Shown here one piece after another: positions 23,252 through 28,820 of a stretch of 34,571 nt of DNA (positions are counted from its first letter, which is position 1; each line of letters starts with the position of its first letter). The translations under genes and the position numbers were made by a program. Source of the DNA: Actinomycetota bacterium (lineage in GTDB: Bacteria; Actinomycetota; Thermoleophilia; Solirubrobacterales; JACPNS01). The notes under the pieces were generated by a model. The model did no database searches, was not told the DNA's origin, and saw nothing but the letters and a program-made list of their open reading frames with translations. Where the stretch lies: assembly GCA_016219715.1 (NCBI GenBank), contig JACRKX010000032.1:1-34571 (forward strand), in the 5' to 3' direction.

Positions 23252-24976
23252 TCAGGAATCGTTGCGGCGCCGGCTGAGCGACTTCGCCCTCCGCTCGCGC
23301 CTGAGCGCGCCGCTTCCCGGCGCCTGCTCGGCGGGCGGGGCGGCCGCGGGCGCCTCCGGAGCGCCGGTTTCGGGTTCGGCGGGACTCACGGGTTCACTCG
23401 CGAACGTGACGGCCGGGGTCACCTCAGCGGACTCTCCCGTGGCAGGCGGCGATTCCGGCTCGTCGCTATCGGCCGACTCGGGCATGCGCAGCGGCAGGTA
23501 CGCCGTGAAAGTCGACCCCGCGCCAGGCTCGCTCTCGACGGCCAGCCGCCCGCCGTGCAATTCGATCATCTGCTTGGCGATCGGCAGGCCGAGCCCGGTG
23601 CCGGGGATGCGCTCGGTGGTGCTCGCGCGGAAGAACGGTTCAGCCAGCTGCGGCAGCTCGTCTTTGGGTACGCCGGGGCCCCAGTCGACCACGCTGACCA
23701 CGGCCTGGCGGTTCACGCGGAAGGCACGCACGACGACGGCCTGGCCCTCGGGGCTGTACTTCAGCGCGTTGCCGATCAGGTTGCCGAAGGCCTGCTTCAG
23801 CCGCAGCGGCTCACCCGATACGACGAGGTCGCCGGTGTCGACGAGCACGAGGTCGACCTTCTTCTCGGTCGCCATCGGAAGCATCTCGGCCTTCAGCTCG
23901 CGCAGCAACAGCCGGATGTCGACTGGCTCGGGCTTCAGCGTCACCTTGCCGCTCTGCACGCGTGAAAGCGTCAGCAGGTCGTTGATCAGTTCGTCAAGCG
24001 TGCGCGCGTTGCGTTCGGCGACCTGCACGTAACGCAGTTGATCGGGCGTCAGATCGCCGGCTTCGCCACCGACCAGCAACTCCAGGTAGCCGCGTAGCGA
24101 GGTGATCGGCGTGCGCAGCTCGTGCGAGACCGACGAAACGAAGCGCGTGCGTGCCGCCGACAACTCGTGCAGCTGCTGCACGTGTTGCTGCACTTCGTCG
24201 GCCATCTGGTTGAAGGCACTCGACGCCAGCAGGATCTCGTCGACGCCACTCGGCTTGACGCGCGCCGAGAGATCGCCGTGCCCGAGCCTGCGCGAGGCGT
24301 CCGCCAGCTCGTCGAGCGGCTGGAGCATCTCACGGCGCAGCCATAGCATCACGCCAAGACTCGTCGCCAGGATCAGCAGGCCGGCGGCGACGATCAGGCC
24401 GATGTTCACGATCTGGCGGGTGCGCAGGGCGTCGCCGGCTTCCTCCTGCAGGCGCAAGAGCTCGTTCTGCAACGCCAGGCCCTGTTCGTTGATCTGCTTG
24501 ACCCGACCGAGCGAGGCCTGACCGCCGATAAGCTGGCGCGCCGCCGCGTCGTGCCCGTCGATCTTCAACTGGACGGCGTGCTCGCCGAACTCCTCGAGGT
24601 AACCCGTCACGTTGTCGACGTAGGCGTCGACCCGCACTTGCAGCACCGAGTCGAGATTGGGACCGATCTGTGAGGAGATCAGCAGGATCTGACCGCGAGC
24701 CTGCGTAAACGGTCCGAGCCGCAGCTCGTCGCCGGTGTTCACGAACTCGCGCACCGCGAGACGCGACCGCTCGAACTCGTTCTGAACGCCACGGATGTAG
24801 AGCGTGTCTCCGGTGCGGGTCTCGACGTCTTCGCTGATCCTGATCATCGAAATGCCGCCGACCACGCCGACGATCAGCACCACCACGATCATGGCTATCT
24901 GCGCGGCGACGCTGATTCTCAGCAGCCGCCTGAAGTTCAGCGCAGACCTTTGTGAAGTTCTGTCGTCACGCGGCAT
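23252..24976 (-). CDS. Membrane sensor histidine kinase (sensor, HAMP, HisKA, HATPase)
   Basis: A 574-residue sensor kinase. TM1 is at about 20-45 and TM2 at about 189-213. The roughly 145 residues between them form a helical extracytoplasmic sensor, CHASE3-like in pattern but not sure. HAMP follows (213-265), then the dimerisation domain with the phosphoacceptor His285 in SHELRTP, then the ATPase domain with NLIGNALKYSPEG (N-box), DWGPGVP (G1) and GTGLGLPIAK (G2). The last 65 residues are Pro/Ala/Glu-rich and end in an Arg/Lys-rich tail (RRERRAKSLSRRR), which is uncommon in kinases. ATG start, with AAGGGG eight bases upstream. It is divergent from a receiver-only response regulator and heads the compact run PHP, ispF, gltX, cysS. 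Confidence 0.94.
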   Translation of the reverse strand: MPRDDRTSQRSALNFRRLLRISVAAQIAMIVVVLIVGVVGGISMIRISEDVETRTGDTLYIRGVQNEFERSRLAVREFVNTGDELRLGPFTQARGQILLISSQIGPNLDSVLQVRVDAYVDNVTGYLEEFGEHAVQLKIDGHDAAARQLIGGQASLGRVKQINEQGLALQNELLRLQEEAGDALRTRQIVNIGLIVAAGLLILATSLGVMLWLRREMLQPLDELADASRRLGHGDLSARVKPSGVDEILLASSAFNQMADEVQQHVQQLHELSAARTRFVSSVSHELRTPITSLRGYLELLVGGEAGDLTPDQLRYVQVAERNARTLDELINDLLTLSRVQSGKVTLKPEPVDIRLLLRELKAEMLPMATEKKVDLVLVDTGDLVVSGEPLRLKQAFGNLIGNALKYSPEGQAVVVRAFRVNRQAVVSVVDWGPGVPKDELPQLAEPFFRASTTERIPGTGLGLPIAKQMIELHGGRLAVESEPGAGSTFTAYLPLRMPESADSDEPESPPATGESAEVTPAVTFASEPVSPAEPETGAPEAPAAAPPAEQAPGSGALRRERRAKSLSRRRNDS

Positions 24977-25013
24977 CCAGGAATCCCCTTGAATTGTTAC
25001 ATTCCGATCGTAC

Positions 25014-25052
25014 GGCCGAACCGGCCTGTCCGCATTACGGGCGCCGAACCGG
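25014..25052. repeat. 10-bp direct repeat and inverted repeat in the kinase/regulator divergent region
   Basis: GCCGAACCGG occurs at 25015-25024 and again at 25043-25052. The first copy lies inside the perfect inverted repeat GGCCG-AAC-CGGCC (25014-25026). They sit in the 95-base gap between the divergent histidine kinase and response regulator. They could be binding sites for a shared regulator; the receiver-only partner has no DNA-binding domain, so a third protein would be needed. Confidence 0.4.
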
Positions 25053-25071
25053 AATCAGCAGAGCGGTTGCA

Positions 25072-25530
25072 TTGAACGATCTCAACGACGATCAGCCAAC
25101 TCAGTCCGACCGTGCTGAACGGCCGAAAGTGCTCGTCGCCGACGACAACGACGACATTCGCGACCTGCTCAGCGCGCGGCTCGAGTTGCGCGGATTCGAT
25201 GTGATTACGGCGCCCGACGGCAAGGCGGCACTCGACGCCGCGCTCGAACACCTGCCGGACGTGATCGTGCTCGACTGGGTGATGCCCGTCATCCAGGGCC
25301 ACGAGCTATGCGTGAAGCTGAAGACCGACCCGCTGACACAGGGCATTCCGGTGATGATGCTGACGGCGCGCGGCGAGGAAGAGGACCGCCTGCTCGGCAT
25401 GGACCTCGGCGCCGACGCCTACATGGTCAAGCCCTTCGACATCGACGAACTGGAGCAGACGTTGCGGCGATTGCTCGACGACGCCGCCGGCGGCGGACCG
25501 ACTAACGATCTCTACCAGTTGCTGCTCTAA
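25072..25530 (+). CDS. Single-domain response regulator (receiver only)
   Basis: A 152-residue protein consisting almost entirely of a CheY-like receiver: the acidic pocket VLVADDNDD, phosphoacceptor Asp in VIVLDWVMP, Thr in MMLTARG, and Lys in MVKPFD. No DNA-binding or enzymatic output domain follows; the tail AGGGPTNDLYQLLL is short. It should be phosphorylated by the divergent histidine kinase and act by protein contact or as a phosphate relay. I chose the TTG at 25072 (weak AGAGCGG upstream). An in-frame ATG at 24952 would overlap the start of the kinase gene and add 40 residues unlike a receiver. Its stop overlaps the convergent ispD stop by four bases. Confidence 0.88.
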   Translation: MNDLNDDQPTQSDRAERPKVLVADDNDDIRDLLSARLELRGFDVITAPDGKAALDAALEHLPDVIVLDWVMPVIQGHELCVKLKTDPLTQGIPVMMLTARGEEEDRLLGMDLGADAYMVKPFDIDELEQTLRRLLDDAAGGGPTNDLYQLLL

Positions 25531-26309
25531 CGCGGGGGGCCCGCAGCGAGCAAGCCGGCCGCCAGCCGCAGATCCGCCTGCGTGGTCACCTTCGGGTTCG
25601 GGTCGGTCCAGGGCAGCACGACCACTCTGCCGCCGGCGGCCTCGATCAGCGACGCGTCGTCAGTCGCGGCGGCGATCGTCTCGTCGGACACGGGAGCGCT
25701 GGGCGGCAGTCCGAGCGCGGCGGCGAGCGCCGCGCCGCGGAAGGCCTGCGGAGTCTGAACGGCCCAGAGCGTGGATCTGTCGAGCGTCGCCGAGACGACC
25801 CCGTCAGCATCGGCCTGCTTGATCGTGTCGGATACCGGCGCGGCGGGCACCAGCGCGTCGGCTTGGCCATCTGCCAGCAGGCCATCGACGCAGGCGTCAA
25901 TCAACGCCGGACCAGCCAGCGGACGCGCGGCGTCGTGTACGAGCACGACGTCAGGCGCGACGATGCCTTCCGGCGACGCGACCGGGTCATCGCTCGCCAT
26001 CGCCACACGCAACGCTTCTCGCACGGAGTGCGAGCGCGTACTGCCGCCGGCACAGAGCGAGACCTGCAATCCGGCGGCGCGAGCGGGGGCAAGCTCGTCT
26101 TCGAAGCGCGCGAGTTCAGCGGCACGCCCAGCGACGACAACGTGCCGTACCGAACGGCAGTGCACGAAGGCTTCGAGGGTCCAGGCCAGCAGCGACCTGC
26201 CCGCACAATCGACGAGCGCCTTGGGGCCCTCGGCCCCTAGGCGCTCACCGGACCCGCCCGCCGCGATCAGCGCCACCGGCGCCGATCGCGGATCAGGGGC
26301 GGGGTTCAT
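25527..26309 (-). CDS. ispD: 2-C-methyl-D-erythritol 4-phosphate cytidylyltransferase
   Basis: A 260-residue MEP-pathway enzyme that couples MEP with CTP. The nucleotide motif is IAAGGSGERLGAEGPKAL (about 15-32), followed by VLVHDAARPL, SDTIK, LWAVQTPQAF and the C-terminal TDDASLIEAAGGRVVVLPW and NPKVTTQADL. All are as in the family, although a Pro-Lys-Ala replaces the commoner Pro-Lys-Gln. Start at ATG 26309 with GGGGGGAG five bases upstream. It is transcribed away from carD across 90 bases that hold a 14-bp tandem repeat, so it may have its own promoter. Normally it adjoins ispF; here a two-component system and PHP gene separate them. Confidence 0.95.
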   Translation of the reverse strand: MNPAPDPRSAPVALIAAGGSGERLGAEGPKALVDCAGRSLLAWTLEAFVHCRSVRHVVVAGRAAELARFEDELAPARAAGLQVSLCAGGSTRSHSVREALRVAMASDDPVASPEGIVAPDVVLVHDAARPLAGPALIDACVDGLLADGQADALVPAAPVSDTIKQADADGVVSATLDRSTLWAVQTPQAFRGAALAAALGLPPSAPVSDETIAAATDDASLIEAAGGRVVVLPWTDPNPKVTTQADLRLAAGLLAAGPPR

Positions 26310-26398: not shown

Positions 26399-26968
26399 TT
26401 ACGCGGCGGGCGCAGCCTCTCCCTGGCCGAGCAAGTCGTCTACGTGCGCCTCGGCATCTTCCTCTGACATGTCCAGCGCGTACATGAACTCGCTGGCGAG
26501 GATGCGCTTGGCACGCACGAACATCTGCTTCTCACCCGACGAAAGGCCCTTCTCGCCCTCGAGCGCGGCAAGGTTGCGAATGACCTCGGCCAGCTCGAAG
26601 ATGTCGCCGGTGCGAATCTTTTCGCGGTTGTGCTTGAAGCGACGGTTCCAGTTGCCCGGCATGTCGCTGACCTCGTCTTGCAGCACGCCGACGACCTTCT
26701 TGACCGTGACGTGATCGATCACGCGTCGCAGCCCGGCGACGCCGGTGTTCTCACACGGCACCATCACGGTCATGTCGTTGTGAAGGATCTGGATGGTGAG
26801 GTACTCGCGCTTCTCGCCAAGCAGGATCTTCTTCTCCTTCTTGAGCACCTTGCCCGCACCGTGGTGCGGGTAGACGACCTTGTCGCCGACCTTGAATTTG
26901 ACCGGCGGAGCCTTGGGCTCGAGATCGAGGTCTTCGAGTTCCAAATCGAGAGTTTCTGAATCGGAAAT
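26399..26968 (-). CDS. carD: CarD-family transcription regulator, apparently starting at ATT
   Basis: An RNA-polymerase-binding regulator of 189 residues. The CarD/TRCF-like domain is KFKVGDKVVYPHHGAGKVL, and the C-terminal DNA-binding helices include MPGNWNRRFKHNREKIRTGDIFELAEVIRNL; the usual length is about 160-190. It stabilises open complexes, notably at rRNA promoters, in mycobacteria. The start is unusual. GGAGGG (26981-26976) is followed after seven bases by ATT (26968), then TCC GAT TCA GAA ACT, reading (I/M)SDSETLDLELEDLDLEPK. An in-frame TAG lies five codons before the ATT. The only conventional in-frame alternative is TTG 26944, 31 bases from the ribosome site. ATT initiation is therefore the best reading. 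disA lies upstream on the same strand, 90 bases away. Confidence 0.92.
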   Translation of the reverse strand: MSDSETLDLELEDLDLEPKAPPVKFKVGDKVVYPHHGAGKVLKKEKKILLGEKREYLTIQILHNDMTVMVPCENTGVAGLRRVIDHVTVKKVVGVLQDEVSDMPGNWNRRFKHNREKIRTGDIFELAEVIRNLAALEGEKGLSSGEKQMFVRAKRILASEFMYALDMSEEDAEAHVDDLLGQGEAAPAA

Positions 26969-27009
26969 GGTCTTTCCCTCCTACTTAAGCGGTCGCTCGC
27001 GGACACAGT

Positions 27010-27064
27010 GCGTCACGTATGCGTGGGAACGGTGCTTTTCAGCGGTGCAGTGCATACGTCACGC
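27010..27064. repeat. Inverted repeat spanning the disA stop and the carD leader
   Basis: GCGTCACGTATGC (27010-27022) and GCATACGTCACGC (27052-27064) are inverted copies matching at 12 of 13 positions, with a 29-base spacer. The right arm covers the disA stop codon. It may be a carD operator or a long-loop terminator of disA. Confidence 0.4.
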
Positions 27065-28171
27065 CTGCATGTAGCGGTCGACCATGTTGATCTCCTGAAG
27101 GCGCTTGAGTCCCTCACGAATGTCTTTGGCGCGCACGTCGCCAACGCCCTCGACTGCCTCGAGTTCGGAGTCGTCGGCCGAGAGCAGCTCGTCAAGGCCG
27201 CCAAACGCGTTGACGATGTCTTGGACGACCATCTTCGGCAGTCGCGGGATGCGTGAAAGGATGCGGTAACCACGCGGCGCCACCACGTGGTCGATGGTGT
27301 TCATCTTGCGGTCGTAGCCGAGCAGTTCTGCCAGGCGACCGAAATCGAGCAGGTCCTGGTGGCCCATGCGGGCGAGCTGGTCTACGACCTGGGCGTACAT
27401 CTCGTCGGTGTCCTCGCCGATGTAGTCGCGCACGAGACCGAACTTTTCGGCGGCGACGCCGATCATGGTCTCTTCGAGCTGCATCTCGATCAGGCGGCCC
27501 TCGGAGCCGAGCTCGACGATGTAGCGCTCGACCTCGACGCTCATGCGCGTGATCAACTCGGCGCGCTGAAGCACGGTGAGCACGTCGTGCATGTAGGCGC
27601 GGCCTTCGAATTCAAGAAGTGTGAGCCGGCTGCTGACCTGGTCGAGGCGGCGGCGGTACTTGTCGAGCGTCGCGAGCGCCTGGTTGGCCTTGGCCAGCAC
27701 TTCGGGGATGTCGACCATCACGTACTTGTTGTTGTCGACGTAGAGCGAGACGACCTCGCGGCGGGCGCTGATCGCCAGCACGATCGCGTCGGACTGTTTG
27801 GCGACGCGCTCGGCGGTGCGGTGGCGGGTGCCGGTCTCGACCGAATGGATGGTGGGGTCGGGCATTAGCTGCACGTTGGCCCAGGCGATCTTGCCGGCAT
27901 TGGCGCTGAGGATGATGGCGCCGTCCATTTTCGCCACCTGGTAGAGCATGGCCGGGGTGTAATCGAGGTCGAGCCTGATGCCACCGCTGAACATGAAGGC
28001 GAGCTCTTCGGGCTCGCAGATGATGATCAGCGCACCAGTGCCGCCCTGAAGCACGTCGTCGATGCCCTCGCGGATGAATGTACCGGGCGCGACCATCTCG
28101 AGCGCACGGAGCAGCTTGGGTTCTAGCCGCGTGTGGATGTCTACCGAGTCTTCACCTACACGCTGTGCCAT
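27059..28171 (-). CDS. disA: Diadenylate cyclase DisA (c-di-AMP synthase)
   Basis: A 370-residue DNA-integrity scanning diadenylate cyclase, which makes c-di-AMP from two ATP and scans branched DNA. The DAC domain has DGA at 83-85 and RHRTA at 116-120. A helical linker follows, and the C-terminal helix-hairpin-helix domain contains VNAFGGLDELLSADDSELEAVEGVGDVRAKDIREGL. Length matches Bacillus DisA. The start ATG 28171 (MAQRVGEDSVDIH) is chosen because the DAC fold begins there. The open frame continues upstream to 28381 but that part lacks coding features. No Shine-Dalgarno is seen; TACAAT lies seven bases before the ATG, so the mRNA may be leaderless. Neighbours are radA and carD, as in other bacteria. 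Confidence 0.96.
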   Translation of the reverse strand: MAQRVGEDSVDIHTRLEPKLLRALEMVAPGTFIREGIDDVLQGGTGALIIICEPEELAFMFSGGIRLDLDYTPAMLYQVAKMDGAIILSANAGKIAWANVQLMPDPTIHSVETGTRHRTAERVAKQSDAIVLAISARREVVSLYVDNNKYVMVDIPEVLAKANQALATLDKYRRRLDQVSSRLTLLEFEGRAYMHDVLTVLQRAELITRMSVEVERYIVELGSEGRLIEMQLEETMIGVAAEKFGLVRDYIGEDTDEMYAQVVDQLARMGHQDLLDFGRLAELLGYDRKMNTIDHVVAPRGYRILSRIPRLPKMVVQDIVNAFGGLDELLSADDSELEAVEGVGDVRAKDIREGLKRLQEINMVDRYMQA

Positions 28172-28178
28172 TCCATAT

Positions 28179-28184
28179 ATTGTA
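28179..28184 (-). promoter_or_regulatory. -10 box for a leaderless disA transcript
   Basis: TACAAT (5 of 6 to TATAAT) lies seven bases from the A of the disA ATG, which would place the transcription start on the initiation codon. No good -35 was found, as is common for actinobacterial promoters. Confidence 0.4.
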
Positions 28185-28298
28185 GGGCATCGGCATTTGG
28201 CTTTGTGATGCGGGTTTGCGGGGTAGTGAGTTAACCATAATCTGGCCGGTGGCACCCGCTCGACCGGCCATCCCGGCGAACCCGGACCGTACGAAGTT

Positions 28299-28820
28299 TC
28301 AGTGACCCGTGACCGGCTGCTGCTCGTGGTGCAGAACCCAGTGCGACTGGGTCGTGGGATACGCGCCCTCGAGCCAGGCATTGACGACTCGTGGCCAGAC
28401 GCGATAGAGCGCCGCGTCGGAGAGCTCGCCCTCAGGCGATAGCTCCTCCCTGGTCATCACGTACTTGTCCATGTACTTGTGCATCACCGAGATTGCCGGC
28501 TCGGAGTTGAATACGTCGTCCCAAGTGCAGACCTGTTCGACGGCGCCGTCGATGATCACGACGTCGTCGGCGCTCTCGACGTGCAGTACACAGCGAGGAC
28601 TGTGAGCGAGGTTCTTGCCCTTTACGCTCGAACGCCCGGTCGAGAACCAGATCGTTCCGTCGTGATAGACGCCCCAAACCGGACGCGCGTGCGGCGCGCC
28701 GTCGGGTTTCACGGTCACGAGCCAGTAGCTGCTGCTGGTGATCAGCTTCCGCTCGACCCAGTTCCATTCGAGCGGTTGGTTTTCGGACTCGTGCGAATGG
28801 CTGTCGTGCAGGGGGTCCAT
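28299..28820 (-). CDS. PNPOx-like flavin/F420-binding fold protein
   Basis: A 173-residue protein of the pyridoxamine 5'-phosphate oxidase-like split beta-barrel family. Strands include SYWLVTVKPDGAPHARPVWGVYHDGTIWFSTG, then SSVKGKNLAHSPRCVLHVES and DDVVIIDGAVEQV. The HARPVWG and 'STGRSSVKGKNL' elements are typical of actinobacterial members that bind FMN or F420 and act as oxidoreductases or haem-like detoxifiers. It lacks the substrate-specific residues I would need to call a true PdxH. It sits between radA and disA on the same strand and interrupts their usual adjacency. Weak ribosome site; start ATG 28820. Confidence 0.8.
   Translation of the reverse strand: MDPLHDSHSHESENQPLEWNWVERKLITSSSYWLVTVKPDGAPHARPVWGVYHDGTIWFSTGRSSVKGKNLAHSPRCVLHVESADDVVIIDGAVEQVCTWDDVFNSEPAISVMHKYMDKYVMTREELSPEGELSDAALYRVWPRVVNAWLEGAYPTTQSHWVLHHEQQPVTGH

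What the first reader, a model, noticed from the sequence alone, without database searches (positions are those of the whole stretch)
26399..26981. carD appears to start at the rare codon ATT
A GGAGGG ribosome site lies seven bases from ATT, and the codons that follow give SDSETLDLELEDLDLEPK, joining the CarD domain in frame. An in-frame TAG lies just upstream of the ATT. No ATG, GTG or TTG occurs within 30 bases of the ribosome site; TTG 26944 is too far. Known AUU starts (infC, pcnB) allow autoregulation through IF3 discrimination, so carD, an rRNA-promoter regulator, could be tied to translation-initiation state. A sequencing error turning ATG into ATT is the main alternative.
Basis: partly seen in the sequence, partly recalled or inferred. 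Interest (0 to 1): 0.6.

Follow-up and report, generated by a model that had tools for sequence, protein, structure and literature searches.

The report
Order-wide ATT/ATC start of carD
In this bacterium and over a hundred relatives, the gene for the transcription regulator CarD begins at the weak start codon ATT or ATC instead of ATG, so the oddity is a conserved feature (probably a brake on CarD production) and not a sequencing error.

Summary
carD starts at ATT (26968-26966, minus strand), behind AGGAGG/GGAGGG, with an in-frame TAG overlapping the ribosome site. It is not an error: the window is from the order Solirubrobacterales (Thermoleophilia). Of 112 distinct carD loci from that order, 72 have ATT and 36 ATC at the codon spaced from a Shine-Dalgarno site; one has CTG, one ATG, and two could not be called. 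In 23 loci no ATG, GTG or TTG exists in frame between the upstream stop and the CarD domain. Codon positions 1-2 never vary in 299 close pairs whose leaders are 67% mismatched; position 3 is T or C. Residue 2 is Ser, Pro, Thr or Ala in 109 of 110. Internal Ile codons of the same genes are 92% ATC, so ATT is not ordinary Ile coding. Other orders of the class start carD mostly at TTG or GTG; sampled loci elsewhere in the phylum at ATG, GTG or TTG. Among 251 conserved gene pairs, carD is the only clear case. The best reading is a conserved weak start that limits CarD synthesis. Control through IF3 is plausible but untested. Precedents: infC, pcnB, Streptomyces sigR (GTC), staphylococcal ccpN and cvfC1.

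The parts
26399..26968 (-). carD coding sequence starting at ATT, 189 residues, stop TAA 26401-26399
   Evidence: Pfam CarD_TRCF_RID and CarD_C
26966..26968 (-). ATT start codon
   Evidence: ATT or ATC at the equivalent place in 108 of 112 distinct loci of the order; ATG at that place in L237
26977..26982 (-). Shine-Dalgarno site AGGAGG, 8 bases before ATT (GGAGGG 26976-26981, 7 bases before)
   Evidence: a strong site is present in nearly all relatives
26981..26983 (-). in-frame TAG stop overlapping the ribosome site; rules out an in-frame upstream start
26897..26965 (-). N-terminal acidic extension of CarD (SDSETLDLELEDLDLEPKAPPVK), present in Solirubrobacterales and missing from the carD of most other Thermoleophilia
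   Evidence: codon-position pattern
26717..26896 (-). CarD RNA-polymerase interaction domain (CarD_TRCF_RID)
   Evidence: residues 25-84
26438..26698 (-). CarD C-terminal domain (CarD_C)
   Evidence: residues 91-177
26942..26944 (-). TTG, the nearest canonical in-frame alternative; no ribosome site and not conserved
26969..27058 (-). 90-base gap between disA stop and carD start; holds the ribosome site
   Evidence: equivalent leader bases -45 to -15 are 67% mismatched between close relatives
27059..28381 (-). upstream gene disA (open frame; family match residues 87-437, so the true start lies inside)
   Evidence: NF010009, E 5e-135
25527..26309 (-). downstream gene ispD

Best explanation
carD of Solirubrobacterales is translated from AUU or AUC, read as fMet by the ordinary initiator tRNA and directed there by a strong Shine-Dalgarno site. 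Purifying selection keeps the start codon in the near-cognate class AUU/AUC and away from AUG. The weak codon acts as a throttle: it holds CarD synthesis well below what the ribosome site would otherwise give and makes it sensitive to start-codon discrimination by IF3. Shown from sequence: the position and conservation of the codon, and that it is unusual in these genomes. Inferred: that it lowers CarD output (from measured cases elsewhere). Inferred and less sure: that IF3 level or activity varies in the cell and so regulates CarD, and through it rRNA and housekeeping transcription. My odds: start at ATT 0.95; selected low-output start 0.8; dynamic IF3-linked control 0.4.
For: 112 distinct loci: ATT 72, ATC 36, CTG 1, ATG 1, uncalled 2. 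23 loci have no canonical start codon in frame between the upstream stop and the CarD domain; 24 have an in-frame stop within 10 codons upstream; only 2 loci, one of them the ATG locus, have ATG/GTG/TTG in any frame at start distance from the site. In L237 the codon is ATG at exactly this place (CCC AGG AGG GAC CAC ATG ACT GAG). In 299 close pairs codon positions 1-2 never differ, position 3 differs in 35% (T/C), and leader bases differ in 67%. Residue 2 is S/P/T/A in 109 of 110, as expected of a residue exposed after Met removal. Internal Ile codons are 797 ATC, 68 ATT, 4 ATA. The tree needs at least 16 changes of the ATC label (at least 6 forced by well-supported branches) against one ATG and one CTG. 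In 251 conserved gene pairs of two relatives, carD is the only clear hit. The initiator-type anticodon loops found are CAU, in 19 of 21 genomes. Measured precedents: AUU/AUA starts give about 10% of AUG output behind extended Shine-Dalgarno sites (PMC13009471); IF3 represses Streptomyces sigR at GTC (PMC5472188).
Against: No protein, ribosome-profiling or reporter data exist here. The effect on CarD level is inferred from other organisms. The strong ribosome site could offset the weak codon. One complete genome (L237) uses ATG, and L108 has lost the pattern, so the feature is not indispensable. infC has a GTG start in this order, so there is no sign of the usual IF3 feedback through an AUU-type codon.
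Confidence: 0.75

Rival explanations
1. Sequencing or assembly error turning ATG into ATT in this genome.
For: The window comes from a draft assembly of 125 contigs.
Against: The same codon is ATT in all five genomes of the genus, including separately assembled named records, and ATT/ATC in cultured strains such as Solirubrobacter soli, Svornostia abyssi, Paraconexibacter antarcticus and Conexibacter sp..
Confidence: 0.005
2. Translation really begins at a canonical codon, either downstream (TTG 26944 in the window) or upstream in frame with disA, and the ATT/ATC is an ordinary Ile codon or leader sequence.
For: TTG starts are common for carD in other orders of the class; some relatives have an open frame upstream.
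Against: TTG 26944 has no ribosome site and is not conserved. 23 loci have no canonical codon at all in the possible range. Internal Ile codons are 92% ATC whereas this codon is mostly ATT (72 of 112 loci). In-frame stops overlap or closely precede the ribosome site in the window and others.
Confidence: 0.03
3. The weak start merely fixes a constant low level of CarD; IF3 or growth state has no regulatory role.
For: Weak starts are typical of carD in the class: 24 TTG, 9 GTG, 6 ATG in 39 loci of sister orders. AUU of cvfC1 showed no medium effect in S. aureus (PMC13009471). infC is not on an AUU-type codon in this order.
Against: A fixed low level could be had by a weaker ribosome site or TTG, and a strong site plus near-cognate codon is the arrangement seen in the IF3-sensitive gene sigR. 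Not decisive.
Confidence: 0.45
4. A dedicated initiator tRNA with anticodon GAU reads AUU/AUC, explaining why ATA is never seen.
For: The set AUU plus AUC is what a GAU anticodon reads; no ATA in 112 loci although infC of related groups uses ATA.
Against: The initiator-type anticodon loops found are CAU, apart from one mismatched GAU hit of doubtful nature in one genome. CTG and ATG each occur once. ATA is very rare in these genes.
Confidence: 0.01

Closest known systems
infC (IF3) AUU/AUC/AUA start and autoregulation
   Same: Near-cognate start behind a ribosome site, conserved over long distances. One search reads an ATC start for infC in L270 (AAGGAG ACACCC ATC AGC GAG), almost the same as carD here.
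   Different: A transcription regulator, not IF3; no autoregulatory logic follows. In this order infC itself begins at GTG.
Streptomyces sigR GTC start repressed by IF3 (PMC5472188)
   Same: A transcription factor gene of an actinobacterium with a near-cognate start, a strong conserved site (AGGAGGTG) and IF3 repression shown experimentally.
   Different: GTC/GTT in one genus, against ATT/ATC across an order here; IF3 not tested here.
Staphylococcus aureus ccpN (AUA) and cvfC1 (AUU) (PMC13009471)
   Same: Conserved non-canonical starts with extended Shine-Dalgarno sites on regulatory genes; about 10% of AUG output.
   Different: Other genes and phylum; mapped by ribosome profiling, which is missing here.
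E. coli pcnB AUU start (Binns and Masters 2002, cited in PMC13009471 and PMC1780047)
   Same: AUU start that limits output of the gene.
   Different: Poly(A) polymerase; conservation range not examined here.
Mycobacterial CarD (PDB 4ilu, 4kbm; PMC8820732)
   Same: Same protein family (E 2.8e-37); CarD level there is also held down at translation, by the antisense RNA AscarD, and by Clp.
   Different: The native solved chains align from residue 24-25 of the window protein, so they lack this N-terminal extension; the translational control is antisense RNA, not start-codon choice.

Membership tests
CarD family (RNA-polymerase-binding regulator) | N-terminal RID domain and C-terminal CarD_C domain | tested here: met
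   PF02559 58.9 bits and PF21095 108.3 bits, both over cut-off; mycobacterial CarD E 2.8e-37
CarD family (RNA-polymerase-binding regulator) | Binds RNA polymerase and stabilises the open complex | not testable with these tools
   needs biochemistry
Genes with a conserved near-cognate start codon | Non-ATG/GTG/TTG codon at ribosome-site distance with no canonical alternative | tested here: met
Genes with a conserved near-cognate start codon | Codon conserved across species as a near-cognate | tested here: met
   108 of 112 loci ATT/ATC; tree
Genes with a conserved near-cognate start codon | Strong Shine-Dalgarno site | tested here: met
   GGAGG or AGGAG core in most loci, 5-6 bases before the codon in the majority
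Genes with a conserved near-cognate start codon | Initiation at that codon shown by peptide, profiling or mutation | not testable with these tools
   no such data held
IF3-regulated genes (infC, sigR type) | Expression falls with extra IF3 and rises with IF3 fidelity mutants or an ATG start | not testable with these tools
   needs reporter or Western blot tests
IF3-regulated genes (infC, sigR type) | infC of the same organism carries a near-cognate start (feedback loop; accessory, not strictly defining) | tested here: not met
   infC begins GTG (one TTG) in the 28 of 30 readable loci of the order, without a ribosome site

The most novel reading that the evidence does not exclude
In Solirubrobacterales the IF3-sensed start codon has in effect moved from infC to carD: IF3 no longer controls itself through an AUU-type codon, and free IF3 relative to 30S subunits sets CarD level, joining rRNA and housekeeping transcription to the state of translation initiation across an order.
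Probability: 0.3. Interest if true: 0.8.

Novelty: new member of a known kind. Interest (0 to 1): 0.6.

Why it matters
Near-cognate starts are documented for only a handful of bacterial genes, and gene finders ignore them, so carD is probably annotated with the wrong N-terminus throughout this large group. An order-wide conserved AUU/AUC start on a global transcription regulator, with natural ATG and CTG variants, would be among the broadest cases outside infC. It offers a direct test of whether start-codon discrimination links translation initiation to rRNA transcription.

Tried and rejected
Sequencing error: rejected by conservation. Start at TTG 26944 or upstream in frame: rejected. Frameshift from another frame: only two loci, one of them the ATG locus, have a canonical codon in any frame at start distance. 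General relaxation of start-codon use in these genomes: not supported by the 251-gene comparison; the other flagged gene (A-24072, VEINRVAKVVKGG) looks like an internal stretch of ribosomal protein uS5, identified by eye only. A dedicated GAU initiator tRNA: none convincing. RNA structure hiding the start: mean folding energy around the start is weaker than upstream and no strongly paired block covers the codon; only a rough look. Literature searches found nothing on the carD start codon.

Full report
The observation. On the minus strand the window reads TAG GAG GGA AAG ACC ATT TCC GAT TCA, with AGGAGG at 26982-26977, TAG at 26983-26981 and ATT at 26968-26966. The frame from ATT runs to the TAA at 26401-26399 and encodes CarD with both domains. 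The next canonical codon in any frame is TTG 26944.

Who it is. The carD search of the window's genome and 60 relatives found it in all 61. Named records place the window in the order Solirubrobacterales, class Thermoleophilia. The gene lies between disA and ispD.

Conservation. The codon is ATT in all five genomes of the genus. In the order, 112 distinct loci were classified by a rule based on in-frame codons behind a ribosome site: 72 ATT, 36 ATC, one CTG (L091), one ATG (L237) and two uncalled (L108, which has an ATG nearby, and L227, where the contig ends). The rule considers only ATT, ATC, ATA, CTG and canonical codons, so it could in principle pick a chance Ile codon. Four results argue against that. 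In 23 loci no canonical codon exists in the whole possible range. In 110 called loci residue 2 is S, P, T or A in 109 (the rule gives a small bonus for this, but it breaks few ties; unscored listings show the same). Base composition aligned on the codon shows A in 106 of 107, T in 107 of 107, then T 72, C 33, G 2, with a G/A-rich site at -12 to -6. And internal Ile codons of the same genes are 797 ATC, 68 ATT, 4 ATA, so an ordinary Ile codon would almost always be ATC.

Selection. In 299 close pairs the leader (-45 to -15) is 67% mismatched, near randomness, while the first two bases of the start never differ and the third differs in 35% as T/C. These pairs are not independent. On a CarD tree the labels ATT and ATC need 18 and 16 changes, with at least 6 forced by well-supported branches, while ATG and CTG each appear once and ATA never. 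A single base change would give ATG, yet it is seen once at this place.

L237 is a natural control: a single-contig genome with CCC AGG AGG GAC CAC ATG ACT GAG, a canonical ATG at the very place where its relatives have ATT/ATC.

Extent. In other orders of Thermoleophilia carD lacks most of the N-terminal extension and starts right at the domain: TTG 24, GTG 9, ATG 6 of 39. In the readable loci from other classes of the phylum the candidates are ATG, GTG or TTG. So weak starts are the rule for carD in the class, and the near-cognate form is confined to Solirubrobacterales as far as sampled.

Uniqueness. About 400 and 368 kb of two genomes of one genus gave 251 filtered pairs of conserved genes. 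Only carD had an aligned ATT/ATC behind a strong site with no aligned canonical alternative carrying a site. The filter is coarse: only 39 pairs had a conserved canonical codon with a ribosome site by this rule, and genes without a site are not judged.

infC. As a positive control, the same reading finds candidate infC starts at ATA, ATC or ATT behind ribosome sites in one family of Thermoleophilia and in other classes (L260, L263, L265, L266, L268, L269, L270, L272), in line with the published ATC of Streptomyces infC (PMC5472188). In Solirubrobacterales infC begins at GTG, one TTG, directly after CTA or similar, without a ribosome site, in the 28 readable loci. The usual IF3 feedback codon therefore seems to be lost there. 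Leaderless initiation is one possibility, not tested.

Mechanism. Measured cases give the expected effect: AUU or AUA starts of ccpN, cvfC1 and citZ fusions gave about 10% of AUG output, up to 30% for ccpN in rich medium (PMC13009471), and Streptomyces sigR at GTC is repressed by IF3 (PMC5472188). By analogy the ATT/ATC of carD throttles CarD. That a low or controlled CarD level matters is supported in mycobacteria, where antisense RNA blocks CarD translation and Clp degrades CarD on starvation (PMC8820732). Whether IF3 varies enough to regulate CarD is open. If CarD activates rRNA synthesis here too, more free 30S per IF3 would raise CarD and so rRNA, which is not a simple homeostatic loop; this is a weakness of the regulatory reading.

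Verdict. A real, conserved near-cognate start on a global regulator, a new member of a small known kind. Interest 0.6, more if IF3 control is shown.

Noticed in passing
L131-L160 (infC loci of the order): infC begins at GTG (TTG in L142) with CTA or similar just before it and no ribosome site, and carries a conserved N-terminal stretch VPVPRRFDRRPPERD; it has no ATT/ATC/ATA start, unlike infC of family f8 of the class and of other classes.
   Followed up: partly
L111-L130, L240-L259: carD of other Thermoleophilia orders mostly starts at TTG (24 of 39), a codon that was rare among 39 conserved starts in two Solirubrobacterales genomes (3 of 39).
   Followed up: partly
L237, L091, L108: Natural variants at the carD start: ATG in L237, CTG in L091, and a changed leader with ATG in L108; useful for comparison.
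   Followed up: no
L050, L079, L083, L088: Records titled Bifidobacterium breve (three) and Acidobacteria (one) carry carD that groups with, or nearly matches, Solirubrobacterales; the organism labels look wrong.
   Followed up: no
window 24952-25530 (+): A response-regulator gene (PF00072) ends tail to tail with ispD, overlapping its stop by about 4 bases.
   Followed up: no
window 26897-26965 (-): The acidic N-terminal extension of CarD varies from about 22 to 50 codons in the order but often keeps an EDLE-like motif; its function is unknown.
   Followed up: no
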